Assembly (NCBI RefSeq): GCF_008868125.1
Contig: NZ_WAAQ01000002.1
Coordinates: 558,001 to 622,000, forward strand
Reading direction: 5' to 3'
DNA: 64,000 nucleotides
DNA from: Microbacterium maritypicum
GTDB lineage: Bacteria; Actinomycetota; Actinomycetes; Actinomycetales; Microbacteriaceae
Shown here: positions 30,250-55,102 of the stretch, one piece after another
Position numbering within the stretch: the first letter of the stretch is position 1
Layout: every line of letters starts with the position of its first letter
The notes under the pieces: generated by a model
Database searches by the model: none
Seen by the model: only the letters and a program-made list of their open reading frames with translations
What the model was told of the DNA's origin: nothing
Made by a program: the position numbers and the translations under genes

Positions 30250-30278
30250 AAGGCCCACGCGATTACCGCGGGGGCCTT
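30250..30278 (+). terminator. tRNA-Tyr terminator
   Basis: A 12-bp stem (AAGGCCCACGCG against CGCGGGGGCCTT, one mismatch) with loop ATTAC, followed by CTCTCG. Its right arm is the start of direct repeat A; a degenerate half of it reappears at the far repeat near 37795. Confidence 0.8.
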
Positions 30279-30405
30279 CTCTCGTCACCGTGGCCCTCAC
30301 CAGAATCGGGTGGCCACATGCCACCGAAGACTTGCGCTCGCCCCGACCTCCGAGATCGTTCGTGAGCGCGCCCGCGGGTTGGTATGTCGACGATAAGGGT
30401 GCGAC
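30277..30405 (+). repeat. Direct repeat A (left boundary of accessory island)
   Basis: The first 26 bp (30277-30302) match 37803-37828 exactly, and 30343-30405 matches 37862-37924 at 61 of 63 positions. The repeat covers the tRNA-Tyr terminator edge and the 5' end of a DUF2510 gene. Together the two copies bracket about 7.4 kb of accessory genes. Confidence 0.9.
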
Positions 30406-30586: not shown

Positions 30587-31004
30587 ACGCGCGGCAAGCT
30601 CCCGCTGCGCGACTGGGTGGTGTCGGTGGAGAAGAACTCACTGCTCGGATGTCAGACTCTCGAGCCCCGCTGAGCGGCATACGTCGATGGAGTGGTGTTT
30701 GCGCGAGACGGAAAATCCTGACAGACATTTTTCTGATCGACGCGACAGGCGCAAAGAGAAGCGGTGACGGCGGCTGCGGCGACGGCAGCACGGCGCCCGC
30801 TCATCGTCCGCATTTGGCCGCAGGAATACGCCGAAGTGAGGGCAGGAAAGATGTGTGTCAGGTGTTCCTTGTGCCTGCAAAAGGCCACCACCGTGTCCTC
30901 CGAAAGGGGGACAGACACTCCGAAACGCTGTCTTTCACACTCAGGGGGAACCGAGGTGAAACTGGTCAATACTGATCCAGGCCTCGCATCCATGAGGAGA
31001 GAAA
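30587..31004 (+). other. Non-coding control region of the island
   Basis: No convincing gene is seen in these 418 bases. They contain the word GTGTGTCAGG (30853-30862), which recurs on the opposite strand upstream of the second secreted-protein gene. They also contain GGAACC at about 30949 followed 16 bases later by an AT-rich hexamer (compatible with an ECF promoter), and a strong GAGGAGAG ribosome site before the next gene. Confidence 0.45.
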
Positions 31005-31397
31005 ATGAAGTTGAGCACGAAGAAGCGCTTGGCGAAGTTCGCCGCCGCGACGGCAGTGTCCGCCGCCCTGATCGTCACGCCGTCGGTTGCGGCGATGGCC
31101 GACGCCACGGCGACGTACACGACAGGCGGCCAGGCGCGCGCCACCGCGTACTGGAATGCATCCTCGGACACGATGTCCAGCACCGACCGTTACAACGACG
31201 GGTGGGGCTCCCGCACCGCGTACAACCTCCGTGGCAATACCAGCAACCAGTACGTTGACAACATCAAGGGCGCCGGCACGACCGAGTCGCGCACCCTGTG
31301 GGTGCTTCCTGGCTGGGAGTTCCGCGTCCAGGCGTGCTCCATCAACAACGGCACGCAGCTCGGCTGCGGGTCCTGGTCGGGCTTCTCGGGAGTCTGA
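31005..31397 (+). CDS. Small secreted protein of unknown family
   Basis: A 130-residue protein with a classical Sec signal peptide: a basic start (MKLSTKKRLAKF), a hydrophobic core and a predicted cut near VAAMADA. The mature part is about 98 residues, rich in Gly, Ser, Thr, Asn and aromatic residues, with exactly two cysteines (QACSINNGTQLGCGSW) that could form one disulfide and no charge bias. I do not recognise the family. A strong Shine-Dalgarno site and a hairpin right after the gene suggest high expression relative to the following exporter genes. The layout resembles a bacteriocin or secreted effector ahead of its dedicated transporter, but toxicity is only inferred. Confidence 0.8.
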   Translation: MKLSTKKRLAKFAAATAVSAALIVTPSVAAMADATATYTTGGQARATAYWNASSDTMSSTDRYNDGWGSRTAYNLRGNTSNQYVDNIKGAGTTESRTLWVLPGWEFRVQACSINNGTQLGCGSWSGFSGV

Positions 31398-31403
31398 CCC
31401 ACG

Positions 31404-31438
31404 CGTGAGACCGGGCCTACTGCGTGCCCGGTCTCACG
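31404..31438 (+). terminator. Attenuator hairpin after secreted protein gene
   Basis: A perfect 13-bp stem (CGTGAGACCGGGC and its complement, nine-base loop) starts 7 bases after the stop codon. No U-tract follows. It sits between the secreted-protein gene and the exporter genes, so partial termination or 3' protection is likely. Confidence 0.75.
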
Positions 31439-31474
31439 TCCCCACCGTCTCGAGATTAGGAACGCCCCGAACCC

Positions 31475-32452
31475 ATGAAACGCCTCGCGCCCACACTGCC
31501 CCTGCTCGCCATTGCCGCACTCGTCATCTCGGGATGCTCCAACGCGTCGTCGGAAGAGGGATGGACCACCCCGGACCTTCCTGCAGAACTCTCCGCGACG
31601 CAGGCGCTCGCAGCGTTGCCGTTCGATTCGTTCGCGATGAGCAACTCCGAACGTGAGCAGCTGCAACAGGGCACGGCCGCTCTACTGAACCGGTGCATCG
31701 CCGACTTCGGTCTCTCTGCGACGTTCAGCGGCGACTACATCCAGCAGCTGAGTGAAGATCCGGACGTGCCTCTCATCTACCAATGGGGAGGCAGGCTCGG
31801 TACTCTCCCGCGTGACCAGGCCGAAGAGTACGGCTACGCAGCACCTCCCGGAGGCGAGTGGTCGAATGGGGCCGGCATCTACCTGTCCAGCGCGGAGAAC
31901 TTGAACCCGGTTATGCCGAGCGATCCGACGGAGGCCGCGCAGCTGGCGGCGGTGATGTACGGCCCCGAGCAAGGAAGGATCCCCGGCGAGGGGGGCGATG
32001 ACCAGGTACTTTCCTCAGAGCTCATCCCGACAGACGTCGAAGGCAATGCGCCATCCGCGAAGGGGTGCTACGGAGTCGTCGAAGACGAGATCGGAGTTCC
32101 GTTCGTCGACCTCCGCGACCTGACGTCCGACGTCTACGGCCTCACGTTCAGTCACGATGCGGTGAAAGAGAAAGCCAGCGCCTGGTCGGCATGCATGAAG
32201 GATGCCGGCTTCGATTACGCACGCTTCGAGGAAGCTCCGACTGCGAATGCGGGCGCGATCAGCGCGGACACTATCGCCGTGGCCTTGGCAGATGTCGAGT
32301 GCACGAAGGAAAGCCGCTGGCCGGACACTTTCTACTACGTCCTCGCCGACTACGAGCAGCAAGCGATAGACAAGCAGCCGGACACGTTCCAATCAGCGCT
32401 GGACGGAGAGCGGAAGCGACTCGAGGCCGTGAACACACTCCTGGGCAAATAG
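31475..32452 (+). CDS. Exporter-associated lipoprotein of unknown family
   Basis: A 325-residue lipoprotein with a lipobox at about residues 18-21 (VISGC). The mature domain has two pairs of cysteines (NRCIADF, KGCYGVV, SACMKDAGFDY, VECTKES) and no recognised fold. Its stop lies 5 bases before the adaptor gene, so it is part of the exporter operon. Surface lipoproteins beside MacAB-like systems may act as substrate chaperones, immunity factors or cell-wall anchors; which applies here is unknown. Confidence 0.78.
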   Translation: MKRLAPTLPLLAIAALVISGCSNASSEEGWTTPDLPAELSATQALAALPFDSFAMSNSEREQLQQGTAALLNRCIADFGLSATFSGDYIQQLSEDPDVPLIYQWGGRLGTLPRDQAEEYGYAAPPGGEWSNGAGIYLSSAENLNPVMPSDPTEAAQLAAVMYGPEQGRIPGEGGDDQVLSSELIPTDVEGNAPSAKGCYGVVEDEIGVPFVDLRDLTSDVYGLTFSHDAVKEKASAWSACMKDAGFDYARFEEAPTANAGAISADTIAVALADVECTKESRWPDTFYYVLADYEQQAIDKQPDTFQSALDGERKRLEAVNTLLGK

Positions 32453-32457
32453 AGACG

Positions 32458-33543
32458 ATGGACGACAAGCCCCGGATGACGCCGACACGTCGAGTAGGCA
32501 CCCTGATCCTCGTCACAGCTCTCGTATCTGCGGCCATCGGGGGTGCGGCCGGCTTCTTCGTGCGCTCGCCCGCACAAGTTGCGGCGGATGCTGCCCCGCC
32601 CGCGCACAGTGAGCTGACCGTTGCCGTCGAAGAGGGCACTATCACCGACCCGCTTCTCCTGTCCGGAGTCGTTGCTCTCGGCAGCGTGACCGACCTCACG
32701 CCAAACGGGGGAGGTGTTGTCACAGGTCTGCCGGTAGCCCTCGGAGCGCAGTTCACCGCCGGTACCGTCATCGCCGAGGTGAACGACAGGCCCGTGATCT
32801 ACCTGCAAGGCTCTATACCGCTGCTGCGGGACCTGCGCCCCGGGGACAAGGGTGAGGATGTTCGGCGCCTGCAGGAAGGGCTGCGTCCGTGGCTGAGCGG
32901 CGAGCCCGATGGCACGTGGGGGACGGCGACGACCCGTGCTCTGCAGGCCCTCTACAAAGCTGCAGGGTATGTGGCTCCTGTGGACAGCGCCGCTCTCCAG
33001 GCGGAGCTCGTATTCGGCGCCGCGGCCACGGCTACGGTTCTCAGCGTCGCGTCCCCGCTCGGAGGAGCGGTCGAGAGTCCGCTGATTCGGGCGACCACAT
33101 CCGATCCGACAGTGACAGCAGAAGTCGCCGATGCGACGTCGCAGCTTGTTCACATCGGTGACCGCGTATCCGTGACAGGCAGTGCCATCGGCGGTGCGCA
33201 GGACGGCACGATCACCGCGGTGGGCGGCTTGGTCACGGGAGACGATGGAGTCAGCCGGGCCACCGTCACAGTCCAGCCGGATGTTGCGTTGCCAGCCGCG
33301 GCTATTGACCGAAAGGTGGAGATCACCGTCTTGACCGGCGCGGACGCTGAGGTCGGTCTCATCGTTCCGCTCTCCGCTATCCGCTCGAACGCGACCGGCG
33401 GAACATATGTACTGCACGTGCACGGGGAGAACCCTCATCGCGTCATGGTGACTGTCGAAGAGACGGGAGGCGGACAGGCGCGAGTGACCGCCAGCGACGG
33501 AGATCTCGCTGTCGGTGACCTGGTCGTGCTGGGCGTGCAATGA
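32458..33543 (+). CDS. Periplasmic adaptor-like protein with peptidoglycan-binding domain
   Basis: A 361-residue membrane-anchored protein with an N-terminal helix at about residues 14-35 (LILVTALVSAAIGGAAGFFV). A lipoyl/barrel-like region follows, then a PG_binding_1 domain near residues 125-170 (LRPGDKGEDVRRLQEGLRPW and later DGTWGTATTRALQALYKAAG), then beta-rich adaptor segments to the C-terminus. This is the Gram-positive counterpart of a MacA adaptor, probably docking the exporter to the cell wall. It overlaps the ATPase gene by ATGA. Confidence 0.85.
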   Translation: MDDKPRMTPTRRVGTLILVTALVSAAIGGAAGFFVRSPAQVAADAAPPAHSELTVAVEEGTITDPLLLSGVVALGSVTDLTPNGGGVVTGLPVALGAQFTAGTVIAEVNDRPVIYLQGSIPLLRDLRPGDKGEDVRRLQEGLRPWLSGEPDGTWGTATTRALQALYKAAGYVAPVDSAALQAELVFGAAATATVLSVASPLGGAVESPLIRATTSDPTVTAEVADATSQLVHIGDRVSVTGSAIGGAQDGTITAVGGLVTGDDGVSRATVTVQPDVALPAAAIDRKVEITVLTGADAEVGLIVPLSAIRSNATGGTYVLHVHGENPHRVMVTVEETGGGQARVTASDGDLAVGDLVVLGVQ

Positions 33544-34214
33544 CAGCTGTCGTCGAACTGCGAGACGTCTCGCGTGTCTACCCTGGGCCACCCGAGGTGC
33601 ACGCGCTGGTAACGTCCTCCGTCACCATCGATGAAGGCGATTTCGTCACCATCGTCGGCCCGTCCGGCTCTGGGAAATCGACTCTTCTGAACCTTCTCGG
33701 CCTTCTCGACAAGCCGACGGCGGGAACCTACGCGTTGAGAGGCCAGGACGTCACGCCGCTTTCGGAAAACGAGCGGGCGCGTGTGCGGGGCACCGACATC
33801 GGGTTCGTCTTCCAGTCCTTCCACCTGCTCGAACAACGCACCTGCTTAGAGAACGTGATGCTCAGCGACCTGTACAACGGAACGACGGAGCGAGAGTCTC
33901 GCGCTCGCGCATACGAGGCGTTGGAGGCAGTCGGACTCGGGGCTTTCGACCGCCGGCTGCCGACCGAACTCTCGGGCGGACAGCAACAACGAGTAGCCAT
34001 CGCCCGAGCGTTGGCATCCGACCCCGCGGTGCTGTTGTGCGATGAACCGACCGGAAACCTGGATAGCGTAACCGCATCGGCCATCCTCACCCTCTTCGAC
34101 GACCTCAACGCCGTCGGCCGCACGGTCGTGCTCATCACCCACGACGCCGACGTCGCCCGCCACGGCAATCGAACACTGCACATGCTTGATGGCGCGTTGA
34201 GCGAGGAGTCATGA
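33540..34214 (+). CDS. ABC exporter ATP-binding protein (MacB type)
   Basis: A 224-residue ATPase with Walker A (GPSGSGKSTL), signature (LSGGQQQRVAIARALA) and CDEPTGNLDSVTA, the class used by MacB and LolCDE systems. Start and stop both overlap neighbouring genes by four bases, so adaptor, ATPase and permease form one translational unit. It should power a mechanotransmission exporter acting on a substrate outside the membrane. Confidence 0.92.
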   Translation: MTAVVELRDVSRVYPGPPEVHALVTSSVTIDEGDFVTIVGPSGSGKSTLLNLLGLLDKPTAGTYALRGQDVTPLSENERARVRGTDIGFVFQSFHLLEQRTCLENVMLSDLYNGTTERESRARAYEALEAVGLGAFDRRLPTELSGGQQQRVAIARALASDPAVLLCDEPTGNLDSVTASAILTLFDDLNAVGRTVVLITHDADVARHGNRTLHMLDGALSEES

Positions 34215-35395
34215 CCCGTCACCCGGTGCGCAGGCGGTTGCTCAACGAGGCGATGGCCGGTGTTGTGCAACGCTCGTCTCGCTCGGGGATGACGATTGTC
34301 GGAATCGCGATCGGCGTCGCGTCCTTCGTGGCGGTGCTCGGCGTGACCGCCAGCGCCAACGGACAGATCAGTGACGAGTTCCTGAGAGTCGAAGCCACCC
34401 AGATCACGGTGACTCCCCGCACTGGGGGAACCGGGACCGAACCTCTCTTCGCTACGGACGCCGACCGCCGTGTCGGTCAGATCGACGGGGTCACCGCGAC
34501 CGGACGATGGTGGAACGTCCCCGGCGTCACCATCAGCGTAAATCCTCCGTCGATCGACCCCGGCTCCTCCCAACCTTCGTTGCTGGCAGCGACACCGGGG
34601 TACTTCGATCTCGTCGGCGCTGAGGTGTCCAGCGGCCGCACATTCGATGAGTTCCATGAGGATCAGCCGGTTGCGGTCATCGGAGACAAGCTGGCCGGCG
34701 ACCTCCGTATCAGCGACATCGCTGATCAACCCGTCATCGTGCTCAACGATCTTCGGGTCACTGTCATCGGCGTCATCGATGACACGACCGGCTCGAGCGC
34801 TGCGCTGACAAGCGTCATCATCCCCGACGGGTTCGCTCGGACACACTTCACTGCACCAGGACAGCGGGAGACGATGGTCGTAGCCACCGAGGTGGGGGCA
34901 TCGGAGGTTGTCGCCGACCAGCTCGCGGTCGCCTTGAACCCCGCGGAACTCACCGCGTTTCAGATCGTCCCACCTCCGAAGCCGACGGTCGTGAAAGACC
35001 GGGTCAACACGTCGACGCAGGCGCTCTTCTTCGCACTCGCAGGCATCTGCGTTCTCGTCAGTGGTGTCGGAATCGCCAACGTGTCATTGCTCGGCGTCAT
35101 CGCCCGCACGCGAGAGATCGCACTTCGGCGTTCGCTCGGCGCCTTGCCCAGACATATAGCGATGCAGTTCCTCGGAGAGTCAGTCGTGCGCGGGCTCCTG
35201 GGTGGGCTTGTGGGTACGGCGTTGGCGATGGCAGCCGTGACCGCCATCGCAGTGAGTCAGCAGTGGACGGCCGTCATCGAACCATGGTCGCTCATCATGG
35301 GGCCGGTCATGGGTGTGGCCATCGGATCGATCGCGGGGCTCTATCCGGCGATTCGAGCCACGAGGATCGAACCGGTAGAGGCGTTCCGTCGATGA
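34211..35395 (+). CDS. ABC exporter permease (MacB type)
   Basis: A 394-residue MacB-like permease with one N-terminal helix (about residues 25-48, GMTIVGIAIGVASFVAVLGV). An extracytoplasmic domain of about 210 residues is followed by three C-terminal helices, including CVLVSGVGIANVSLLGVI and AIGSIAGLYPAIRATRIEPV. This is the standard four-helix MacB topology. With the adaptor and ATPase it forms a complete tripartite-like exporter. The best local candidates for substrates are the two small secreted proteins of the island, by context only. Confidence 0.9.
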   Translation: MTRHPVRRRLLNEAMAGVVQRSSRSGMTIVGIAIGVASFVAVLGVTASANGQISDEFLRVEATQITVTPRTGGTGTEPLFATDADRRVGQIDGVTATGRWWNVPGVTISVNPPSIDPGSSQPSLLAATPGYFDLVGAEVSSGRTFDEFHEDQPVAVIGDKLAGDLRISDIADQPVIVLNDLRVTVIGVIDDTTGSSAALTSVIIPDGFARTHFTAPGQRETMVVATEVGASEVVADQLAVALNPAELTAFQIVPPPKPTVVKDRVNTSTQALFFALAGICVLVSGVGIANVSLLGVIARTREIALRRSLGALPRHIAMQFLGESVVRGLLGGLVGTALAMAAVTAIAVSQQWTAVIEPWSLIMGPVMGVAIGSIAGLYPAIRATRIEPVEAFRR

Positions 35396-35419
35396 ACGTC
35401 TATTCGATTTCGTTCTGTC

Positions 35420-36406
35420 TCACTTGACGTCCCACAGCGTGTACCCGACGACACCAGCAGGAATGAACTCCATCGCCTTGGTCAGTTCGTTCTCGGTACC
35501 GACTATCCGCCCCGTATCCCGAGAGATGAGGAGTGTGTTCTGATAACCGCGGTCGTCGATGGTTGTGCGGAGCCCGACGACCGCTCGTCCCAGTCGGTCG
35601 GTCGATTCGCCGAGAACCGTGACATCGCCTGCATCGACGAGCATGTGGATTAAGGTCGCGTGCTGTTCGTCGGTCAAGGTCCAGTAGCTCAGCAGTTGGC
35701 TGATGGCCACGAGGAGGTCTCCGGATGAAGAGTCGGCTGACGCGCCAAGCTCTCCCAGCGCTGCAAACAGTTCCTCGCGACTCGACCCCTTCAGGCTCAC
35801 AACCCCGGGCGGGATGTCGAGGTCTGCGGCGCTGGTCGTGAGTTCGCTGATGATGTCACCAGGTCGATACGGACTCTCAGCGATGCCCTCAGGCCGCGCA
35901 TCGCCAGACCAATACGATTCGGCGGCGACGACCGTGCTGATGGAGCCAGTCTCCGGCGACCAGTCGAAGGTTGTTTTTTGCGGCACGACCTCCACCCGCC
36001 CCTTCGCCATGTCGATGTTCCACCCCCAGCTCAGCGTCTGCACCCGCGACTCCTGGACGACGTCGTCTGGCAGATCGAGTTTCAGCTCAGCGGCTGTGAC
36101 GACGGCAGACAGCGGCTGCGCGTTTGCGTATTGCAGTGGCGGGGGCGTGAGCGCGACAGCGGATTGCGTCGGACCCAGTACGTTGACCGCGATGATGGTG
36201 ACCGCAGCGATGGATGCCACCACGGCGGTCACGCCGCCCCAGACCCGCCCTGCGCGACGGCGAGGCTCCGGTGATAGTTCGAACGTCCCGCGGATGATGC
36301 CCTCGCGGATAGCGATGTCGCGCGCGGTGAGCGGAGCGAAGCGTGCGCCCGGCGCAGGGCTCACTGCTCGGAACAGCTGGTCCAGCTCCTCGTCGGAGAC
36401 GTTCAT
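35420..36406 (-). CDS. Anti-sigma factor-like membrane protein (CU044_5270 type)
   Basis: A 328-residue single-pass protein. The N-terminal cytoplasmic part of about 60 residues (SDEELDQLFRAVSPAPGARF) is the likely sigma-binding region. A membrane helix follows at about residues 55-75 (GVTAVVASIAAVTIIAVNVL), then an extracellular domain of about 250 residues. Its start overlaps the sigma factor stop by ATGA, the standard sigma/anti-sigma arrangement. It resembles the CU044_5270 family of actinobacteria. The extracellular domain presumably senses the state of the envelope or of the secreted product. Confidence 0.8.
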   Translation of the reverse strand: MNVSDEELDQLFRAVSPAPGARFAPLTARDIAIREGIIRGTFELSPEPRRRAGRVWGGVTAVVASIAAVTIIAVNVLGPTQSAVALTPPPLQYANAQPLSAVVTAAELKLDLPDDVVQESRVQTLSWGWNIDMAKGRVEVVPQKTTFDWSPETGSISTVVAAESYWSGDARPEGIAESPYRPGDIISELTTSAADLDIPPGVVSLKGSSREELFAALGELGASADSSSGDLLVAISQLLSYWTLTDEQHATLIHMLVDAGDVTVLGESTDRLGRAVVGLRTTIDDRGYQNTLLISRDTGRIVGTENELTKAMEFIPAGVVGYTLWDVK

Positions 36407-37020
36407 CGCCCGTCCTCCTTCACCTCAAGCTGGATACGCAGCTTCGTCCTCGCGCGGGTGAGTGTGGTCCATACCGCCGCAGAACTGCAACGCAGCACAG
36501 CCGCGACCTCACCGGCGGTGAGTTCGTCCCAGTATGTGAGTACCACCACTTGACGCTCACGGGCGTTCAACTTCTTCATAGCCTGACGCAGCGCGAGCGC
36601 CTCCAGCGGATGAAGCCGCTCCGCGGCGTTCTCCAAGCCCCGGCTCATCGCGTCAAGCGCCCTCCCTCGCGAACGGGCACTTCGGTCGACATCGCGGACC
36701 TTGTTGTCTGCGGTGCGGATGAACCAGCGCAAGCCCATCGGCGTCTCCGGACGCAGTTTCCTCCATGCGACGACGAACACCTCCGCAGTGATCTCGTCGA
36801 CTTCTTCCTGGTTGTCGAGGAAACCCGACAGGTGGTGGTGCACGAGAGGCCAATACTCATCGAACAATCGGCGGAAGACGACGGCCTTGTTGAGAGCCGG
36901 GGCGCTCGTCGAGGTGCTGGAATGCGCCTCAGCCGGAAGGGGAAAGCTCTCAGCTCCGGCAAGAACGACGCGGACGGTATCGAATAGCCCCAGCCTCACC
37001 ATCGAAGACGCCCCGCTCAT
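36403..37020 (-). CDS. ECF-type RNA polymerase sigma factor
   Basis: A 205-residue sigma factor. Region 2 is around RLFDEYWPLVHHHLSGFLDN with VDEITAEVFVVAWRKL. Region 4 is LNARERQVVVLTYWDELTAG followed by a HTH (EVAAVLRCSSAAVWTTLTRA). It should direct polymerase to a small regulon, probably including the island itself, under control of the anti-sigma factor encoded downstream. The start has GAGGAGAC about ten bases upstream. It lies 29 bases after the second secreted-protein gene, so all three appear to be one operon. Confidence 0.87.
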   Translation of the reverse strand: MSGASSMVRLGLFDTVRVVLAGAESFPLPAEAHSSTSTSAPALNKAVVFRRLFDEYWPLVHHHLSGFLDNQEEVDEITAEVFVVAWRKLRPETPMGLRWFIRTADNKVRDVDRSARSRGRALDAMSRGLENAAERLHPLEALALRQAMKKLNARERQVVVLTYWDELTAGEVAAVLRCSSAAVWTTLTRARTKLRIQLEVKEDGR

Positions 37021-37049
37021 CTCGCTCGTCTCCTCAGGTTATCGGGTGC

Positions 37050-37511
37050 TCAGAGCGTGCAGAGCAAGTTGGTGGTGCCAGCGCCGACGTTCGCGGAACC
37101 GTTCGCCCCGGCCGTCGCGAGCGTTGTGCCTGAGGAGTTGCGCGCGCGAACGCTGCCGAAGGAGCGGCCGTTGGCGATGGATCCGACGGACTGCAATGCG
37201 GCTGTGCTGACGGTGGTGCAGATGGTGAACGTCAACTTCGAGCCTTGAAGATTGGGCGAGGCGTATGCGCAGTATGTCCCGGTGGCGCAACTGCCGACAG
37301 CGCGCAGCGACGCGGACTCCGACCCCGCTTCGAGGATCATCCCGAGTGCCGGCCAGACGGCGGTGGTGTCGTTCACGGCGAAGCCGCCGGGCAACGCCTC
37401 CAAGGCGTACTCGACATCCGGGTGGAGTTCGTCGGAGTCTGCGTTGGCTGTGGCAGGTGTGAGAACCAGTGCGAGGACGAGCGCCGCGATGGTGGTGATG
37501 GTGCGTTTCAT
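37050..37511 (-). CDS. Small secreted protein, peptidase inhibitor I36-like
   Basis: A 153-residue protein with a Sec signal peptide (MKRTITTIAALVLALVLTPA, cut near ANADSD). The mature domain includes CATGTYCAYASPNLQGSKLT and a later Ser/Gly/Asn-rich stretch. The spaced C-x5-C plus aromatic and glycine pattern resembles the SMI-type/I36 inhibitor or crystallin-like fold of actinobacterial secreted proteins; this is a similarity by eye, not a firm family call. It is the first gene of the sigma/anti-sigma operon and may be an output or a signal of that pathway. Confidence 0.72.
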   Translation of the reverse strand: MKRTITTIAALVLALVLTPATANADSDELHPDVEYALEALPGGFAVNDTTAVWPALGMILEAGSESASLRAVGSCATGTYCAYASPNLQGSKLTFTICTTVSTAALQSVGSIANGRSFGSVRARNSSGTTLATAGANGSANVGAGTTNLLCTL

Positions 37512-37802
37512 GTTGCCCCCAGGCTCAGGATGCGAGGGAACCCGGGGGCCAACCGAGCACCCCGCCGAGGGGCGCGAATGGCCTCCGATCTCAGTACGGG
37601 TGCCCTCCGATTTCAGTATCCGCGCGGGATAGCGGTCCCATCCGCTCCTTCTTTGCGGCTGAGGGCGATTCCTGACACACCTGTTCGATGACTGAGCCCA
37701 GCTAAGTTCACAGCTGTCTTCGCGCGACGTGCTCGTGGTGTCAGGTCTCACTTTCGTGGTCGCGCGATGGGTGACTCCCACCGAGAAGATTGGGCGGGGG
37801 CG
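37512..37802 (-). other. Control region of the sigma operon
   Basis: No gene seen. It carries the word GTGTGTCAGG (minus strand, 37671-37680), shared with the control region at the other end of the island, and is a candidate autoregulated ECF promoter region. Confidence 0.4.
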
Positions 37803-37924
37803 TTCTCTCGTCACCGTGGCCCTCACCATGAATAGCGTGGTCACGACGACGTGTGCTCGCACCGACCTCCGAGATCGTTCGTGACCGCGCCCGCGGGTTG
37901 GTATGTCGACGACAAGGGTGCGAC
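37803..37924 (+). repeat. Direct repeat B (right boundary of accessory island)
   Basis: This copy matches repeat A in the same orientation: 26 bp exact at the left end, then 61 of 63 bp over the 5' end of the DUF2510 gene. The sequences diverge right after the codons for DDKGAT, which marks the inner or outer breakpoint of the island. Confidence 0.9.
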
Positions 37925-43163: not shown

Positions 43164-43218
43164 GCCATCATCATGACGATGCCTTCCTACATCGGTCTCC
43201 GACGCTATGCTCACGATC

Positions 43219-43812
43219 ATGACTAACAAAGCGAGAACGGCTGCGCCGCTTCTGATCGCCGTTCTCCTGCTCGCCGGATGCGCCGAGACTGCATCACCTG
43301 CGCCGGCCCCCACGGTCGAGGAGGCCGGGCCGACGTCGAGCTCCTCGCCGACGCCGACGAGCGCCGCTCCCGCCACGAGTGAGAGAGGGAACCTCATCAA
43401 GACGGTTGGGGAGACCTTTGGTCTCGGTGGCGGTACCGACGGCGCTTCCGTCGCTGATTTCGTCGTCACCGCGATTGACGTCGACCCTGTGTGCGCTGCA
43501 GAGTTCGCAACGGCGCCCGAACACGGGCACTTCGTGCGACTCGCGATCGAAGGCGAAACGACCGCCGAGCTCCCCGGTGACCTCTACTTCGCCGGTGGGA
43601 CCTGGACAGCCATAGCCGAGAACGGCACTACGTTCAACGGCGATCCGTGGAGCATTGCAGCGATCAGCTGCCAGAACGACGCCGAAAGGTTCCCGAGCAT
43701 CGTAGGTCCTGGGGAACGCGTCGCGGGAGCTGTGATCCTCGACGTTCCTACTGCGCACGGAGTCATGGTCTGGGAGCCGGAACCCGGGCTTTCCTGGGAA
43801 TGGTCTTTCTAG
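43219..43812 (+). CDS. Prophage lipoprotein (possible superinfection exclusion)
   Basis: A 197-residue lipoprotein with lipobox LLLAGC, a Pro/Ser/Thr linker of about 35 residues, and a beta-rich domain with two cysteines (DPVCAAEF, ISCQND) that resembles DUF4352-type telokin folds. The ATG at 43219 is preferred over 43207 because TATGCT lies seven bases before it. Prophage lipoproteins next to the attachment site often block DNA entry of related phages; that role here is inference. Confidence 0.72.
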   Translation: MTNKARTAAPLLIAVLLLAGCAETASPAPAPTVEEAGPTSSSSPTPTSAAPATSERGNLIKTVGETFGLGGGTDGASVADFVVTAIDVDPVCAAEFATAPEHGHFVRLAIEGETTAELPGDLYFAGGTWTAIAENGTTFNGDPWSIAAISCQNDAERFPSIVGPGERVAGAVILDVPTAHGVMVWEPEPGLSWEWSF

Positions 43813-43956
43813 ATTTCACCGCCCTTCCACGTGCAGGCATGCGGGGCAGTTGCCAGCGGAGAAATCGTGAGGATCTTGCGCGCTCGACCGTCCTGTCGAA
43901 CGTCGTAGCCCTCGACGTAGAATCGTCTCCTCGGCCGGAGGAAGGAATCACCGGCT

Positions 43957-44274
43957 ATGGGGAACCCTGGATCGACGCTCTCCGCGTACCGGAATAAGCA
44001 GTCACAGGAACGATCGATCCTGGAGGCTGCGAAGCACGGCCCGCTGCAGTCGCTCACCGATCGTGAGATGGACGTGCGCGAGCAGCCGATGACGATCTAC
44101 CCGCGACCGAAGCGCGTCCGTGCGTGGGTGCGGTTCGGGCCCGAGGCGGTGCGCGTCGACGCGAAGATCGTACGCTCCACCCCGCTCGCCGCCGGCATCG
44201 AGTTTTGCGCCGGCGAACAGACATTCCGATGCTGGGTATGGGGCAACGCCGTGCAACTCGACGAGGTCGCCTGA
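43957..44274 (+). CDS. Phage hypothetical protein
   Basis: A 105-residue protein with an Arg/Lys-rich N-terminal half and a beta-rich C-terminal half (RAWVRFGPEAVRVDAKIVRS). A strong GGAGGAAGGAA site precedes the ATG. It lies 41 bp upstream of the RelA/SpoT-domain gene on the same strand. Function unknown. Confidence 0.65.
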   Translation: MGNPGSTLSAYRNKQSQERSILEAAKHGPLQSLTDREMDVREQPMTIYPRPKRVRAWVRFGPEAVRVDAKIVRSTPLAAGIEFCAGEQTFRCWVWGNAVQLDEVA

Positions 44275-44315
44275 GAATCCACCACGCTCGCCGGGGCCTC
44301 GGCTAGGATTCGGGC

Positions 44316-45137
44316 ATGCTGCGATGCCCCTGGACCAACGCGCAGCTGCGGAGGCTCAGTAACCACATCCGTGACGGCGCCCCGCTGACACCGGGGGACC
44401 CGTCATACAGCGAGGTGATGGTCTGGTACAACGACCTCGCGGCGCAGGTGCAACGGGAGATTGCGTCGCTCGCTTGGGAGCCGCTGCTTCGAGGGCGACC
44501 GTTCGAAGTGACGTCGCGTCCGAAGACTATCGACACACTCCGAGACAAGCTCCGGCGGGACACGGGCACGCCTCTGTTGAGCGTGCAGGACATCGCTGGT
44601 GTCCGGTTTGAAGCGGAAATGTCACTCGACGAGCAGGATGGTGTTGTCAACGCGATCTGCGGCCTGTACGGTCATGACCTCGAATCTGCCGTTCGTGACA
44701 TGAGGGGGAAGCCGCACTCCGGCTATCGCGCCGTGCACATCTGGTTGAAGCTACCTGCTCGAGTTGAGATTCAGGTGCGGACACATCTGCAGGGGCACTG
44801 GGCGAACGCCTACGAACTCGCCGCAGACATCTACGGCCGAGAGATTCGCTACGACGATGCCCTTCCTGACGATGAAATCCAGGCGGGGATCGTGACGGAG
44901 CTGCGGGAGATCTCTCTCTTTCGGGTATCGAAGATCGAGCGTGACCGTAACGAGATCTCAAACCTTGAGTCTCAAGTGGAGGATACGGTTCGGCGAGGCG
45001 GTGCAGAGCCTCCGCTATGGTTGCGGCGTAGACTGGCGTTGCTCAGGCGCCGCAATGGGACCAATGAGCGGGAGCTGCAGGCTCTTCTCTCGGAGGTTCA
45101 AGCAGCGTTCGAGCGCGCAAGGCTAGGAAGGGACTAA
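44316..45137 (+). CDS. RelA/SpoT-domain nucleotide pyrophosphokinase (toxSAS-like)
   Basis: A 273-residue single-domain synthetase without hydrolase (HD) or regulatory domains. Catalytic elements of the RelA/SpoT fold are present: R68 and K70 in TSRPKTIDTLRDKL, K78, metal aspartate D92 in VQDIAGVRF, Y137 and H141 in GYRAVH, and E151, Q153, R155 in VEIQVRT. The C-terminal 100 residues are helical and charged. Stand-alone phage-borne synthetases of this kind are known as toxSAS toxins (for example PhRel of phage Phrann), which inhibit growth with alarmones or by modifying tRNA ends. TAGGAT sits six bases before the ATG, giving an autonomous leaderless promoter. A small gene follows after 3 bases and is the likely partner. 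Confidence 0.86.
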   Translation: MLRCPWTNAQLRRLSNHIRDGAPLTPGDPSYSEVMVWYNDLAAQVQREIASLAWEPLLRGRPFEVTSRPKTIDTLRDKLRRDTGTPLLSVQDIAGVRFEAEMSLDEQDGVVNAICGLYGHDLESAVRDMRGKPHSGYRAVHIWLKLPARVEIQVRTHLQGHWANAYELAADIYGREIRYDDALPDDEIQAGIVTELREISLFRVSKIERDRNEISNLESQVEDTVRRGGAEPPLWLRRRLALLRRRNGTNERELQALLSEVQAAFERARLGRD

Positions 45138-45140
45138 GCG

Positions 45141-45365
45141 ATGCCTGGATTTGTCATCGAATATCACCGGCCAAGCGGGGACCGGCGGGTCACCGAGTTC
45201 CCCGGCGAGAACGGTCACCGCGAAGCGTTGCAGTATCGACTCGCTCTCGAACGCGAGCGTGTCGACGGAAACTGGGAGATTGCCTCTCTGAACTCCCAAT
45301 CGCTCGACATGCTCCAGCGCACTCACCGTCGCTACTTCCAGGGGCGGGAGCTCCTGAGCGCCTAG
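45141..45365 (+). CDS. Small partner of RelA/SpoT-domain protein (candidate antitoxin)
   Basis: A 74-residue charged protein (VIEYHRPSGDRRVTEFPGEN) beginning 3 bases after the synthetase stop, with AAGGGA upstream. The tight coupling and size fit an antitoxin of a two-gene toxin-antitoxin pair in toxin-first order. No recognised DNA-binding motif is present, so it would act by protein binding if at all. It could also be an unrelated small phage protein. Confidence 0.6.
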   Translation: MPGFVIEYHRPSGDRRVTEFPGENGHREALQYRLALERERVDGNWEIASLNSQSLDMLQRTHRRYFQGRELLSA

Positions 45366-45381
45366 GGGCACAACAGCGAAG

Positions 45382-45417
45382 AAGACCCCATCCAGCCGCG
45401 GCCGGACGGGGTCTTTT
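45382..45417 (+). terminator. Terminator of the RelA/SpoT operon
   Basis: Stem AAGACCCCATCC...GGACGGGGTCTT with one G-T pair, followed by TTTC. It closes the two-gene unit. Confidence 0.85.
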
Positions 45418-45615
45418 CATGCAGGTGGCCATGTCGGTGGCGAGAGTGGACGCGGACGAATCAGCCGAGCAGCCGCCTGGTGCGCGGTTGGAGTGAAGAC
45501 CATCCTCGTCTTGCGGGCGGTCGCCACTCCGATGACGGTCGCGCTGAGCGGGGGGGCGTCGAAACGTCGGCTCGCGAAAGATCGATCGCATCTGGGCGAT
45601 CGCGCGCGAGCAAGG

Positions 45616-45858
45616 TCACGGCGCGGTGGGATCCTCGTCGTTGGCGACGGCTTCAATCCAGTCGATTGCGCGATCCGTAAGGGTGATCGTAGTTCCGCTG
45701 TCGTCCCACCCCGCTGCGTAGTCGAACGTCGTGCCGGCGTCGCGGACGGTGGACGCGACGTTGTCGGGCAGCGGCTCGCCGTTGTGAGCGATCAGCCATT
45801 CCCGCGTTTCATGGGGGAGGTTTGCCCACCAGCCGTCCATGCTCGTGGTGGTGATCAT
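45616..45858 (-). CDS. Phage hypothetical protein
   Basis: An 80-residue acidic protein rich in tryptophan (MDGWWANLPHETREWLIAHN and WIEAVANDEDP at the end). The frame is open further upstream, but the extension is unlike protein. The gaps on either side (45418-45615 and 45859-46031) hold nothing I can assign. Function unknown. Confidence 0.5.
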   Translation of the reverse strand: MITTTSMDGWWANLPHETREWLIAHNGEPLPDNVASTVRDAGTTFDYAAGWDDSGTTITLTDRAIDWIEAVANDEDPTAP

Positions 45859-46031
45859 CCCATGACCCCTGGCGCAGGGTGCAGACGCGACTCCGCGTCT
45901 GAAACGGCAGAAGACCTCCACTCGGCCGAAACCACGTGGGGGGTCTCTCAACGTATCGAGGTCTGAGCTCGGGTGTCTGTAGGCCAAAGAGGGGACAGCG
46001 TGGGGCGCGTGTTCTTCAATACGTTGTGCGT

Positions 46032-46898
46032 ATGAGTCCTCCTCAAGAACCACATCCGCTGGGTGCGAGCTTCGCGCATCGCCCCGTATCGCGTCGGACC
46101 ATGCTCGCGGCCACCGGCATTACCGCAGGCGTAGCGCTCGTCGGGCGCGGCATCCTGACCGGTGAATCGGCGTCCGCAGCTGTCCCCGCCACGAACGGAT
46201 ACATCTACCCCACCGACCCGTTCAAAGCATCCACCGAGGCAGCTGGACAGTTCAACGCACCGCGTGAGGGCACGCGACGCCATATGGGGCTGGACACCTG
46301 GGGGTACCGTGGCATGCCGGTCCTCGCAATCGCAGGTGGATATGTATCCGGAGGCGACTGGGAGTCCACGCCCAGCGATCCCCACGGGTGGGGGAACCAC
46401 ATCGTCGTCGACCATGGCAACAGTGTGGTGAGCCGGTATGCCCACTTCGAAGGGGCACCCATCGTCGCGCGAGGCGCGACGGTCGCACAGGGGCAGACGC
46501 TCGGCTATATGGGCAACAGCCAACGAGGACCACGCAACTCTGCGATGGGAGTGCACCTGCACTTCGAGATCCTCGTGAACGGTGCCTTCGTCAGCCCCCT
46601 CGCATTCTTGGCGGGCAACTCATCTCCGCCCGTGACGAACCCCAACCCTGACCCCGGCTACGAACCGATTGGAATCGCTGACATGACCTTCCTGTGCATC
46701 ACCCCCATCAACGGAACCAACGCCGACGCCGGCGTCTACCGCTGGATCATCGACCCCGCCGCGGGAACCAAGCGGAACATCGACGGGGGCGAGTACGAGT
46801 ACTTGAAGACTGTCGGATACCGAGAAGTCGTCGGACTTCAAGCGCCGATCACATCGGCGCGGTATCAGCAGATCTATCCGGCAGCAACCACCCCGTGA
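46032..46898 (+). CDS. Secreted M23 endopeptidase, probable phage endolysin
   Basis: A 288-residue protein with a twin-arginine-type signal (SRRTMLAATGITAGVALVGR) and an M23 domain with zinc motif RRHMGLD and closing VHLHFEILV. A C-terminal domain of about 75 residues begins near GIADMTFLCITPINGTNADA. It should cleave peptidoglycan bridges and probably served host lysis with the holin-like gene converging from the right. TACGTT lies six bases before the ATG, so it has its own leaderless promoter, which is unusual for a lysis gene and may mean it is expressed in the lysogen. Confidence 0.82.
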   Translation: MSPPQEPHPLGASFAHRPVSRRTMLAATGITAGVALVGRGILTGESASAAVPATNGYIYPTDPFKASTEAAGQFNAPREGTRRHMGLDTWGYRGMPVLAIAGGYVSGGDWESTPSDPHGWGNHIVVDHGNSVVSRYAHFEGAPIVARGATVAQGQTLGYMGNSQRGPRNSAMGVHLHFEILVNGAFVSPLAFLAGNSSPPVTNPNPDPGYEPIGIADMTFLCITPINGTNADAGVYRWIIDPAAGTKRNIDGGEYEYLKTVGYREVVGLQAPITSARYQQIYPAATTP

Positions 46899-46900
46899 AG

Positions 46901-46945
46901 CACAGAAGACCCCACCCTGCGTCGGGCAGGGTGGGGTCTTCTGTG
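46901..46945. terminator. Bidirectional terminator, 20-bp perfect stem
   Basis: A perfect 20-bp stem with loop GTCGG lies between the converging endolysin-like and holin-like genes and can terminate both. Confidence 0.93.
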
Positions 46946-46946
46946 T

Positions 46947-47363
46947 TCAGAGTCCGAGGCGGTCGTTGTGTTCAGAGATCGTGGTGGGAAGCTGTGCCGT
47001 CTCGTCGGTGCCGGTGTCTGCGCCGTCGAGCAGCGCGCGCCACTGTCGTCGGGTGAGTCCGGTGGTGTTGCCGTCGATCTGAGCCACGACAGCACCGGAG
47101 GGGGCCGAGCCGGCGCCGAACTTGCGGAGCCATTCGTCGACGGCGGGGATTGCCATCACCCGCGCGACTGCGGCGCTGATGCCGGCGAGGACGGCGATCG
47201 CTCCGGTGAGCCACGCGACGAAGGGGCCCGGGAGCACGTCCTGGATCGCGGTGAGGATCTGCGGGGCGATGACGACTATGGTCGCGAGGATGGCGGCCGC
47301 GGCGATGATGACCTGCACGGCTGTGCGGATGGCCCGCTGCAGCGGGAACCAGATCTTGTTCAT
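46947..47363 (-). CDS. Holin-like phage membrane protein
   Basis: A 138-residue protein with two predicted membrane helices in the first 75 residues (VQVIIAAAAILATIVVIAP and PFVAWLTGAIAVLAGISAAV) and a polar C-terminal tail of about 65 residues. Size, topology and position by an endolysin-type gene fit a holin. The stop lies right at the shared terminator. Confidence 0.68.
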   Translation of the reverse strand: MNKIWFPLQRAIRTAVQVIIAAAAILATIVVIAPQILTAIQDVLPGPFVAWLTGAIAVLAGISAAVARVMAIPAVDEWLRKFGAGSAPSGAVVAQIDGNTTGLTRRQWRALLDGADTGTDETAQLPTTISEHNDRLGL

Positions 47364-47374
47364 GGTGTTCCGAT

Positions 47375-47626
47375 CTATCTCGGGAGGCCTTCCGGCCAGG
47401 GCGGGAGTGGGATGCCGTGCGCGGCCATGTGGTCGCGCTGCACGCCGATGAATGCGCGGTAGGCGCGGTTCTCGGATGTGAGCTCGTCGACCGCGTCCTC
47501 GAGGCGGCCGATTCTGCGGTCGTTGTCGTCGCGGTAGCGCGAGAGTTCTTCCTGCAGTTGGTCGATGAGCTTGTCCTGCGCCGAGGTCTCGGCGACGACC
47601 TCGGCGACCAATGACCATGACCTCAC
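47375..47626 (-). CDS. Phage coiled-coil protein
   Basis: An 83-residue protein that is mostly one coiled coil (DKLIDQLQEELSRYRDDNDR and GRLEDAVDELTSENRAYRAF). It precedes the holin-like gene by 11 bp. The GTG at 47626 is the best available start, though the ribosome site is weak. Function unknown; small coiled-coil proteins are common in phage lysis or tail-end modules. Confidence 0.55.
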   Translation of the reverse strand: MRSWSLVAEVVAETSAQDKLIDQLQEELSRYRDDNDRRIGRLEDAVDELTSENRAYRAFIGVQRDHMAAHGIPLPPWPEGLPR

Positions 47627-47660
47627 GGCCGAGGATTCGCGCTGACGATGCGCCCGGCGT

Positions 47661-47936
47661 CTAGATGATCTGTGAGGAGATGACGGTGCCGAAGATCGCG
47701 GTGTTCTGGAACAGGACGAACACATTCTGGTACACCGTCTGCAGCGTACGACCGACGATCACGATGATCCCCGTACGCGGCGCGAGACGCACGGCGAGCA
47801 GAAAAGCGAGCAGGCTGATGACCGTCTTCCCAGACGACACAGCACCGAACCACAGGGCGAGCTTGAACTTCATCGCGTCGACGAGAGAGAGCAGCTGCGC
47901 CGGGGACACCATGCGCTCGAGCTCATCAAGCCTCAT
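47661..47936 (-). pseudogene. Phage terminase large subunit, N-terminal fragment
   Basis: Only 91 residues remain of a protein normally over 400 residues. The ATPase Walker A is intact in ALWFGAVSSGKTVISLLAFL and is followed by IIVIVGRTLQTVYQNVFVLF, typical of terminase motor domains. The frame then ends at TAG, 34 bp before the next gene. All head and tail genes that normally follow are missing, so this is one side of a large deletion. It overlaps the small-subunit gene by 11 bp. Confidence 0.85.
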
Positions 47937-48432
47937 CAGCCGGCGTCTCCGCTCGAAGTCGATCAGCGGCAGCAGCGAACCCGACAGCGAGAGTGTCGAT
48001 CACACCGATCGCCTGCTCGAGCCCACCGTTCTCGCGCTCGACGATGCGAGTCAGCTTGTCGAACGTGATCCCGGCCGTCGTGATGACGTTGCGGCGCACC
48101 TCCACCGGGGCAGAGTCCAGCACGCGCGACTCGAACGTGTTGTCCTTCCCGCCGAAGTTGTACACCTCGTACGGGCCATCAATCACGTCGAGCATGTCCT
48201 CCGACGCGGCGAGCATCTTCTCCGCCAGACGGATCCGCCCAGCAGCGAGGTCGACGGTGTGAGCCGCGACCGCAGCTGCCGTCTTCGACCGATCGAACGA
48301 CAGACCCGCAGCTTTCGCCCACCGCGACACCGTCGAAGCAGCGCACCCGAGCTCGCGGGCGATCGCGTTGCAAGATAACTGCTGGTCGTAGAGCTCCCGA
48401 GCGCGTTCAGCGTCGAATGTTGCTTGCGCCAT
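47926..48432 (-). CDS. Phage terminase small subunit-like DNA-binding protein
   Basis: A 168-residue protein with an N-terminal helix-turn-helix (LSCNAIARELGCAASTVSRW) and a helical C-terminal region. Position just before the terminase large-subunit fragment and the HTH-plus-helices layout fit the small subunit that recognises packaging sites. It is apparently intact, although its partner is not. Confidence 0.75.
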   Translation of the reverse strand: MAQATFDAERARELYDQQLSCNAIARELGCAASTVSRWAKAAGLSFDRSKTAAAVAAHTVDLAAGRIRLAEKMLAASEDMLDVIDGPYEVYNFGGKDNTFESRVLDSAPVEVRRNVITTAGITFDKLTRIVERENGGLEQAIGVIDTLAVGFAAAADRLRAETPADEA

Positions 48433-48537
48433 GACGGATCACCTCGACTCGGGCCTCTTGCCCTGTGCGGTGTCGGCGTTGGGCCGTACGTTGGGGAGAA
48501 GTGCTGAGCATGGGGCTCGGCGAAGAAGGGAACGATC

Positions 48538-48711
48538 GTGGCAGATCGGGAAAGCACCAAAGCCGCGCTGTTCGCGGCGATCGAGGCGGAGCTTGCGGAC
48601 GTGAGCAAACTGAGCGCGCTTGGCTCTCGGGTCAAGGTCGTGCATGACCTTGCCCTGGCCTACCGGTACGCGGCGGGTGGTCCTCAGCCTGGCAGCGGCG
48701 CTGGTGAGTGA
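48538..48711 (+). CDS. Small phage protein
   Basis: A 57-residue frame starting GTG with GAAGGGA eight bases upstream: ADRESTKAALFAAIEAELAD, then VKVVHDLALAYRYAAGG. It is helical and has a hairpin terminator right after it. It opposes the terminase genes, as lysogeny cargo often does. Function unknown. Confidence 0.55.
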   Translation: MADRESTKAALFAAIEAELADVSKLSALGSRVKVVHDLALAYRYAAGGPQPGSGAGE

Positions 48712-48723
48712 TTGACCGCATGG

Positions 48724-48762
48724 GCGAAGCCCCGGTGTCTTCCCTGAGGGCCGGGGCTTCGC
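48724..48762 (+). terminator. Terminator after small phage gene
   Basis: A 12-bp perfect stem GCGAAGCCCCGG / CCGGGGCTTCGC with a 15-base loop. No long U-tract. Confidence 0.75.
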
Positions 48763-48855
48763 TCTGGGCGGAGTGCTCCACCATCTACCTTCTATCGTTG
48801 CGGGTTTCGCGAATTAATGCACGGCCAGATCGGTGGATCTCGGTACGATCGGGGA

Positions 48856-49590
48856 ATGACCAACGCCGCCCAAGAGCTCGCCGACATACTCGATGGTTGG
48901 CGGGTCGTCTCGAAGGGCAATTCGATCCGTACTCTACGCAGCCTGCACGCCGATTCCCCAGATGAGTGGCGAGGGCAGGTCCGCGCATTCGGCCTTCTCC
49001 ATGAGGTGGACAGCTACCTGGCCTCGGCGCAGCTCGGGGGAAGGAACGTCGACCATTACTTGCGCGCCTATCCGCAGTGGGCGAAGGCCCTGGTCGCACC
49101 GGACATGCTGTGGTCCGACGCGGTGACAGGCAGCGCCCGCGGCGTCGTGGACCAGGGGAGCATCGACGTGCTGCGTGCTCTTGGCGACATCATGGATTCG
49201 TCCCAGCTGAGCGTGTCTCTGTCGCCTGAGATGACGATTGATGGCCTCGCAGCAGTGGACGCACTCCTTGAAGCACTATCTGACCCGTCCGTGCATCTCA
49301 GGGAGGCGGAGCGCCGGTACGTGTACGAGCTGATCGCGTCAGTTCGTCGAGTCTTCGAAGAGTCCACCGTGCTCGGCTCAGTTGATCTGCTCGGTCGCGT
49401 ACATGAGCTTCTCGGCGTGATGTCGCTGCTGGCTGAGACGCTCGCGAAAGATCCGCAGACGAGCAAGCTTGCAAAGAAGATCAAGGACGCCGCCCGACGG
49501 ATCGTCCCGTACGCCTCGTTTGGTGCGAAGGTTGGCGCGGGGACGATCGGAGCGGCCGCCGATCTGCTGCAGATCACGACAGGTGGCTGA
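48856..49590 (+). CDS. Prophage cargo protein of unknown function
   Basis: A 244-residue, largely helical protein without signal peptide. Its C-terminal end (ASFGAKVGAGTIGAAADLLQ) could be weakly membrane-active. TACGAT lies six bases before the ATG, giving an autonomous leaderless promoter opposite to the lytic genes. This suggests expression in the lysogen. I do not recognise the family; an abortive-infection or immunity role is possible but untested. Confidence 0.7.
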   Translation: MTNAAQELADILDGWRVVSKGNSIRTLRSLHADSPDEWRGQVRAFGLLHEVDSYLASAQLGGRNVDHYLRAYPQWAKALVAPDMLWSDAVTGSARGVVDQGSIDVLRALGDIMDSSQLSVSLSPEMTIDGLAAVDALLEALSDPSVHLREAERRYVYELIASVRRVFEESTVLGSVDLLGRVHELLGVMSLLAETLAKDPQTSKLAKKIKDAARRIVPYASFGAKVGAGTIGAAADLLQITTGG

Positions 49591-49836: not shown

Positions 49837-49914
49837 GGTTCATGCGCACAGCGGCGTCGTACATCAACTGGCCATCCTTCTTGGTCGAGCGCGTGTTTGT
49901 GGTTGGGTTCTCTC

Positions 49915-50769: not shown

Positions 50770-50793
50770 CCCGCACTTCTCGAGGATGGTTGG

Positions 50794-51599: not shown

Positions 51600-51677
51600 G
51601 CCACACCTCGCGACTTTGGGCAGCCCGCATAGAGGGACCAGCTGGGTGACCGTCGCCTCAGAGAAAGCAGGACCCTC

Positions 51678-51836: not shown

Positions 51837-51848
51837 CGGAAGGGGCGC

Positions 51849-55060: not shown

Positions 55061-55102
55061 GAGACCGCCTCGTCCGCAACGGGACGCGCTAGAGACGCGC
55101 GC

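What the first reader, a model, noticed from the sequence alone, without database searches (positions are those of the whole stretch)
31005..37511. Candidate undescribed secretion/envelope system: secreted protein, lipoprotein, PG-anchored MacAB exporter, ECF sigma and anti-sigma, second secreted protein
Two converging operons inside one island combine a small two-cysteine secreted protein of unknown family, a surface lipoprotein and a tripartite-like exporter whose adaptor has a peptidoglycan-binding domain. They also carry an ECF sigma/anti-sigma pair led by another small secreted protein. Parts are familiar from bacteriocin export and envelope stress, but I know no described system with this whole set. 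A secreted effector with self-monitoring export, or envelope defence, is plausible.
Basis: inference. Interest (0 to 1): 0.75.

Follow-up and report, generated by a model that had tools for sequence, protein, structure and literature searches.

The report
Sigma-controlled secreted-protein, lipoprotein and ABC locus
The gene group is real and is one instance of a widespread, apparently undescribed actinobacterial system in which a small secreted protein is paired with a lipoprotein of an unnamed family, in part beside an ABC transporter and, in some Microbacterium, beside its own sigma factor; it may be a self-protected antagonism or envelope-defence system, but its function is untested.

Summary
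All eight genes are present at the stated place in a Microbacterium genome. Comparison shows two modules. E: small Sec-type secreted protein, lipoprotein, HlyD-like adaptor, ABC ATPase, MacB-type permease. R: another small secreted protein, ECF sigma factor, anti-sigma-like protein. The lipoprotein family has no Pfam or NCBIfam model; it occurs in 46 of 296 genomes sampled from the class and 75 of 244 Microbacterium genomes. A small secreted-protein gene lies directly upstream of 27 of 41 lipoprotein genes, against 16 of 471 other genes; that partner varies (I36/crystallin-like, ricin-like). Anti-sigma genes neighbour it 13 times, 0.26 expected. A promoter-like element, TGTMAGG-N14-GCAA, precedes both window operons and some relatives (chosen after looking). 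So the set is a regulated system, not chance. My preferred model is a Sec-exported antagonist with lipoprotein-plus-ABC self-protection under sigma control; envelope defence is a close rival. Structure prediction never returned; no function was tested.

The parts
31005..31397 (+). secreted protein 1 (130 aa, Sec-type signal, two Cys); module E
   Evidence: 5 of 247 Microbacterium genomes; distant relatives without the lipoprotein
31475..32452 (+). lipoprotein of an unnamed family (three invariant Cys and one nearly invariant over 35 members); module E
   Evidence: no Pfam match at E 0.01 in any of 35 members, one incidental NCBIfam match
32458..33543 (+). HlyD/MacA-like adaptor with PG_binding_1-like insert; module E
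   Evidence: HlyD_3 above cut-off, PG_binding_1 below
33540..34214 (+). MacB/LolD-type ABC ATPase; module E
34211..35395 (+). MacB_PCD + FtsX permease; module E
35420..36406 (-). anti-sigma-like membrane protein (CU044_5270-like, below cut-off); module R
36403..37020 (-). ECF sigma factor; module R
37050..37511 (-). secreted protein 2 (153 aa, weakly I36-like), first gene of the sigma operon; module R
30856..30881 (+). promoter-like element TGTCAGG-N14-GCAAA, 149 bp before secreted protein 1
37652..37677 (-). same element, 166 bp before secreted protein 2
30698..30723 (-). same element, divergent from the E operon; purpose unknown
30268..30405 (+). left direct repeat, partly in a DUF2510-like reading frame, next to tRNA-Tyr
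37794..37924 (+). right direct repeat

Best explanation
Shown: the locus combines two recurring modules, and both operons follow a shared promoter-like element. Inferred: the ECF sigma factor, held by the membrane-spanning anti-sigma-like protein until its outer domain senses a change at the envelope, transcribes its own operon (with secreted protein 2) and the E operon. Secreted protein 1 leaves by Sec and acts at neighbouring cell envelopes as a bacteriocin-like antagonist. The neighbouring lipoprotein, tethered outside the producer's membrane, binds it, and the MacB-type ABC pair with its wall-reaching adaptor uses ATP to clear it from the producer's envelope. That is self-protection comparable to a lantibiotic lipoprotein plus ABC immunity pair. 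The secreted partner is exchangeable (crystallin/I36-like, ricin-like and others), while the lipoprotein family is kept.
For: Secreted gene directly upstream of the lipoprotein gene in 27 of 41 vs 16 of 471, in many cases less than 90 bp away. Different secreted families with one lipoprotein family: of 32 scanned, 23 match I36 and 2 ricin-type at E 0.01. An I36 profile without Microbacterium rows finds the E-module partners of L190, L159, L191, L192, L163. Tandem pairs in L087 and L088. Secreted and lipoprotein distances correlate, r 0.65, 0 of 2000 permutations (species descent not removed). In 40 genomes chosen for the lipoprotein, 21 of 22 close adaptor relatives lie within 1.6 kb of a lipoprotein hit (by eye). 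Anti-sigma linkage 13 vs 0.26 expected; 6 not used in the profile, p 3e-7. Promoter-like element. Mobility: different sites and orientations, integrase-core genes nearby, tRNA-Tyr site. Analogues: Lcn972 cluster with putative ABC immunity genes; [quoted passage not shown] a reference title).
Against: No toxicity, binding or immunity was shown. All five E genes are under purifying selection, and secreted protein 1 is as conserved as the rest (92% vs 80-87% to L006, 83% vs 79-92% to L007), unlike many diversifying toxins. The lipoprotein-adaptor-ABC operon without a secreted gene fits sensing or detoxification better. Six Microbacterium loci with lipoprotein, sigma and anti-sigma have no recognised secreted gene directly upstream (L152, L154, L166, L167, L189, L193). 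Secreted protein 1 has relatives without lipoprotein neighbours. The sigma link is absent outside Microbacterium (0 of 59 with both).
Confidence: 0.38

Rival explanations
1. Envelope-stress and antimicrobial-detoxification system: the ECF sigma pair senses damage to the wall and induces lipoprotein plus ABC, which strip foreign antimicrobials from the membrane; the small secreted proteins shield or repair the wall, or act as sensor ligands, and are not toxins.
For: Lipoprotein-adaptor-ABC-permease operon without secreted gene in Microbacterium, including the window's own genome (L164), and beside a divergent response-regulator-like gene in the 12 loci L094-L105 (read by eye). ECF control. In L077 the lipoprotein domain sits behind a longer N-terminus directly downstream of an ECF-like sigma gene, which suggests a sensor role.
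Against: Does not explain why a secreted gene is so tightly paired with the lipoprotein even where no exporter or sigma is near, nor why that partner changes family.
Confidence: 0.36
2. The MacAB-like complex is a true exporter that moves the Sec-delivered protein through the wall.
For: Adaptor with a PG-binding-like insert, MacB-type permease and tight co-directional spacing; 7 of 11 Microbacterium pairs have an adaptor; in Gram-negative MacAB-TolC an exported protein also first uses Sec (recalled).
Against: Sec-type signals; in other genera 26 of 33 pairs have no adaptor within 6 kb; operons without a secreted gene; a single-membrane host has no outer membrane to cross (recalled).
Confidence: 0.16
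3. Two unrelated operons happened to land in one tRNA-Tyr island and do not work together.
For: Modules R and E each occur alone; in G134 R sits at the tRNA-Tyr site and E elsewhere.
Against: Repeated neighbourhood with different orders in other genomes and the shared promoter-like element.
Confidence: 0.07

Closest known systems
MacAB-type ABC exporter
   Same: HlyD/MacA-like adaptor, MacB-type ATPase and MacB_PCD/FtsX permease
   Different: scores far below the MacB equivalog cut-off (209 and 86 vs 966 bits), permease separate from the ATPase, PG-binding-like insert, lipoprotein partner, no outer-membrane channel gene in the locus
Lactococcin 972 cluster
   Same: small secreted protein followed by a putative ABC immunity pair (PMC4055356, passages); the ABC scores 187.8 bits to the L_ocin_972 export model
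   Different: below that model's cut-off (254.85), secreted protein 1 matches no Pfam family, plus lipoprotein, adaptor and sigma control
Nisin immunity NisI + NisFEG
   Same: lipoprotein plus ABC next to a secreted antimicrobial (analogy; gene names seen, roles recalled)
   Different: no sequence comparison made; MacB-type permease with adaptor here; no lanthipeptide enzymes among the island genes
Peptidase inhibitor I36 / microbial beta-gamma crystallins
   Same: 23 of 32 scanned secreted partners match I36, and their profile matches solved bacterial crystallins (E 4e-4)
   Different: secreted protein 1 does not match; secreted protein 2 only below cut-off
ECF sigma / CU044_5270 pairs
   Same: sigma gene overlapping a CU044_5270-like membrane-protein gene; 113 anti-sigma-like matches in 95 of 241 Microbacterium genomes
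   Different: below the NCBIfam cut-off; 100 of those 113 are not within 6 kb of a lipoprotein hit

Membership tests
MacAB-TolC exporter | adaptor + MacB-type ATPase/permease | tested here: met
MacAB-TolC exporter | MacB equivalog score | tested here: not met
   209 and 86 bits vs cut-off 966; the model is for the fused protein
MacAB-TolC exporter | outer-membrane channel | not tested
   none among the locus genes; host is monoderm (recalled)
Lactococcin 972 system | lactococcin_972 structural domain | tested here: not met
   secreted protein 1 matches no Pfam family at E 0.1
Lactococcin 972 system | TIGR03608 ABC at cut-off | tested here: not met
   187.8 vs 254.85 bits
Bacteriocin with lipoprotein/ABC immunity (works like) | secreted gene directly beside lipoprotein and ABC genes | tested here: met
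Bacteriocin with lipoprotein/ABC immunity (works like) | killing and self-protection | not testable with these tools
   needs bench assay
Inhibitor_I36 | Pfam gathering score, secreted protein 2 | tested here: not met
   17.2 vs 21.1 bits; no match to an independent profile
ECF sigma factor | regions 2 and 4 | tested here: met
Anti-sigma factor | CU044_5270 model at cut-off | tested here: not met
   60.1 vs 100 bits
Anti-sigma factor | beside the ECF gene, short N-terminus before a membrane span | tested here: met
   (span read by eye)
Anti-sigma factor | binds the sigma factor | not testable with these tools
   needs bench assay
Known anti-phage defence | PADLOC family for the specific genes | tested here: not met
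   matches only for the ATPase and permease, generic in kind

The most novel reading that the evidence does not exclude
A widespread actinobacterial antagonism system in which one conserved lipoprotein family acts as receptor or immunity protein for exchangeable small secreted beta-proteins, with a MacB-type ABC and wall-reaching adaptor as clearing motor and, in Microbacterium, a dedicated ECF sigma factor as switch.
Probability: 0.33. Interest if true: 0.82.

Novelty: new variant of a known kind. Interest (0 to 1): 0.66.

Why it matters
If right, many unannotated small secreted proteins of actinobacteria gain a testable partner (the lipoprotein) and role, and an ECF regulon with a recognisable promoter becomes available to find further members. 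It would also suggest what lipoprotein-coupled MacB-type transporters do in single-membrane bacteria.

Tried and rejected
Rejected: (a) chance neighbourhood; (b) secreted protein 2 as a proven I36 protein; (c) secreted protein 1 as a lactococcin 972 or solved-structure relative by sequence; (d) known anti-phage system.

Led nowhere: the genome-contig scan with secreted protein 1 gave only two loci (L022, L023), from genomes already seen as G124 and G223. No gene was recognised behind the divergent element at 30723. The phage-library search of the unknown proteins gave weak or no hits. Structure prediction: one job (A3) was accepted but had not finished at its last poll; the lipoprotein job (A4) was answered busy each time. 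So no fold is reported.

Limits: genes in fetched loci were called with my own codon-score script, signal peptides with a crude rule. The loci were picked by me from longer hit lists, best scores favoured; 20 of the 98 Microbacterium lipoprotein places were fetched. Rows left out of A5: L055, L060, L074, L078, L079, L080, L089 (fragments or near copies); out of A6: L055, L077, L078. Loci L189-L193 were fetched because an anti-sigma gene was near, so overstates sigma linkage; among L149-L168, chosen by lipoprotein alone, sigma plus anti-sigma were near 5 of 19 lipoprotein genes. L094-L105 were fetched for adaptor hits, so overstates the adaptor share in other genera; one search separates them. 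The lipoprotein and anti-sigma samples (244 and 241 genomes) were drawn separately. The element was shaped after reading and shortened from GCAAA to GCAA after one search had already shown seven of the eight sites; only the L180 site was new. The profile HMMs include some of the loci later counted.
Full report
What is there. The window lies in a Microbacterium genome: its same-genus relative G124 has a contig of the same number and length (C8, 326731 bases) as the one that the search for related loci names Microbacterium sp. 3J1. They lie between direct repeats just 3' of tRNA-Tyr. In G004 the same site, recognised by the flanking kinase-like gene, the tRNA region and the FBP gene, holds only a 204-aa gene whose start matches the window's DUF2510-like frame (69.9% over 156 bases; no Pfam match of its own at E 0.001) and a bile-acid-symporter-family gene. 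In G134 the tRNA-Tyr site holds the sigma module without the exporter operon (73.7% nucleotide identity over 35422-37685) beside an integrase-core gene, while its exporter operon is elsewhere.

Module E. Secreted protein 1 was found in 5 of 247 Microbacterium genomes. In 4 of those 5 all five genes are together; in the fifth (L009) only secreted gene and lipoprotein were found, with an integrase-core gene 3.5 kb away. In an order-wide sample of 396 genomes, 13 reached E 0.01 but only the own genome and G408 (1.8e-7) were better than 1e-5. The lipoprotein reaches much further: 46 of 296 genomes of the class at E 1e-3, 75 of 244 Microbacterium genomes at 1e-5, 9 of 198 of a phylum sample at 1e-10. 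Its 35-row alignment has three invariant cysteines (C74, C240, C276), a nearly invariant one (C198) and invariant W237, M241 and G245. No member matches Pfam at E 0.01 and one has an incidental NCBIfam match.

The pair. Of 41 lipoprotein genes in the loci have a gene of at most 205 aa with a crude Sec signal directly upstream; of 471 other genes in the same loci 16 do (Fisher p 9e-24). Of 32 small secreted proteins scanned (including secreted protein 2 and its L008 relative), 23 match I36 and 2 ricin-type lectin at E 0.01. Their profile matches bacterial crystallins among solved structures (E 4e-4). A profile of 27 non-Microbacterium partners finds the partners of L190, L159, L191, L192 and L163 (E 9e-12 or better) but neither secreted protein of the window. 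Secreted protein 1 has distant relatives that lack the lipoprotein in the stretches fetched (L202, L203, L204); in G408 (L010) a relative precedes ABC-like genes (read by eye).

The transporter. In 40 genomes chosen for holding the lipoprotein, 22 adaptor genes score E 2e-45 or better; 21 have a lipoprotein hit within 1.6 kb, and the 22nd a marginal one (counted by eye). Of the weaker adaptor hits only those of G643 and G680 lie near one, by the same count. A form without recognised secreted gene or sigma occurs in Microbacterium (L157, L160, L161, L164, L168; L164 is the window's own genome) and in L094-L105, there beside a divergent gene that reads as a response regulator, with a gene of 429-673 aa behind it that may be its kinase (not scanned). 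In other genera 26 of 33 secreted-lipoprotein pairs have no adaptor within 6 kb; in Microbacterium (window, L006-L009, L149-L168) 4 of 11 have none.

Module R. Genes like secreted protein 2, sigma and anti-sigma form a unit without module E in 9 of the 12 fetched loci L177-L188 (L177, L179, L181, L182, L184-L188, order varying; no secreted gene was called in L178 and L180, no sigma in L183). Of 113 anti-sigma-like matches in 95 of 241 genomes, 13 lie within 6 kb of a lipoprotein hit against 0.26 expected; 6 of these were not used to build the profile (p 3e-7). L190 has genes like secreted protein 2, sigma, anti-sigma, I36, lipoprotein, adaptor and ABC in one direction. Over 29 lipoprotein genes in 30 Microbacterium loci, 14 have a recognised secreted gene upstream, 20 an adaptor and 12 sigma plus anti-sigma within 6 kb, 5 everything; over 59 in other genera the numbers are 33, 24, 0 and 0 (selection of loci is told under limits). 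So the sigma link is seen in Microbacterium only.

Regulation. Reading upstream regions showed TGTMAGG-N14-GCAAA. In the 64-kb window it occurs exactly three times, all between the island's repeats and outside the called genes: before secreted protein 1, before secreted protein 2, and divergent from the former; 0.13 are expected even with one mismatch allowed and 0 of 100 shuffles had three. With GCAA as the second half, 33 other Microbacterium loci (509,548 bases) hold 8 sites against 0.225 expected (largest of 40 null sets 2); six precede sigma (L152, L180), lipoprotein (L154, L167, L189) or I36-lipoprotein (L190) genes, at 68-626 bp, and two lie upstream of a 571-aa gene in L007; 941,909 bases of loci from other genera hold none. 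The pattern was not fixed blind. A weight matrix trained on eight R-operon sites of other genomes ranks the window's secreted-protein-2 site first and its secreted-protein-1 site fourth in the window, and 7 sites score as high as the latter in 962,807 bases of other loci. No site was found in L006, L008, L009, L155, L159, L166, L191, L192 and others of the 33. That the sigma factor reads this element is inference.

How it may work. The evidence supports a regulated system, not its function. Sec-type signals and the many pairs without an adaptor argue against export as the transporter's main task. The tight pairing of a changing secreted partner with one lipoprotein family suggests binding between them. 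I prefer antagonism with self-protection (0.38) narrowly over envelope defence (0.36). All five E genes are under purifying selection, and the distances of partner and lipoprotein correlate (r 0.65 over 25 pairs), though shared descent can cause that.

Literature. Nine searches of the open library listed no description of this set; only the best-ranked papers of each are listed. The Pfam name of I36 or its accession occurs in one paper, on a fungus. I saw passages of PMC9964109 and PMC4055356; of the others only search listings.

Noticed in passing
window 43207-57424: Prophage-like stretch of short genes 3' of tRNA-Thr and tRNA-Met; of 10 proteins scanned 6 match PHROGs, among them an endolysin-like peptidase, a single-strand DNA binding protein, an HNH endonuclease and a head-protein fragment.
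   Followed up: partly
window 30698-30723 (-): A third exact copy of the promoter-like element points away from the E operon, about 280 bp from the first start codon; L007 has one at the matching place, but no gene was recognised behind the window copy.
   Followed up: partly
L077:7801-8913: Lipoprotein-family domain behind a longer N-terminus that reads like an anti-sigma start, directly downstream of an ECF-like sigma gene.
   Followed up: no
L165 (G000:C1 about 390 kb): The window's own genome holds another lipoprotein-adaptor-permease stretch in which no ABC gene was called, with a transposase-like gene nearby; it looks decayed.
   Followed up: no
L094-L105: Lipoprotein-adaptor-ABC-permease operon beside a divergent response-regulator-like gene in 12 genomes of one family; the ABC gene was not called in L103.
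   Followed up: partly
L006 and L007: The five-gene unit sits near the same dehydrogenase-like operon in two genomes but in opposite orientation (read by eye).
   Followed up: no
L087, L088: Two secreted-lipoprotein pairs close together in each; the L088 secreted proteins read as the two ricin-type matches.
   Followed up: no
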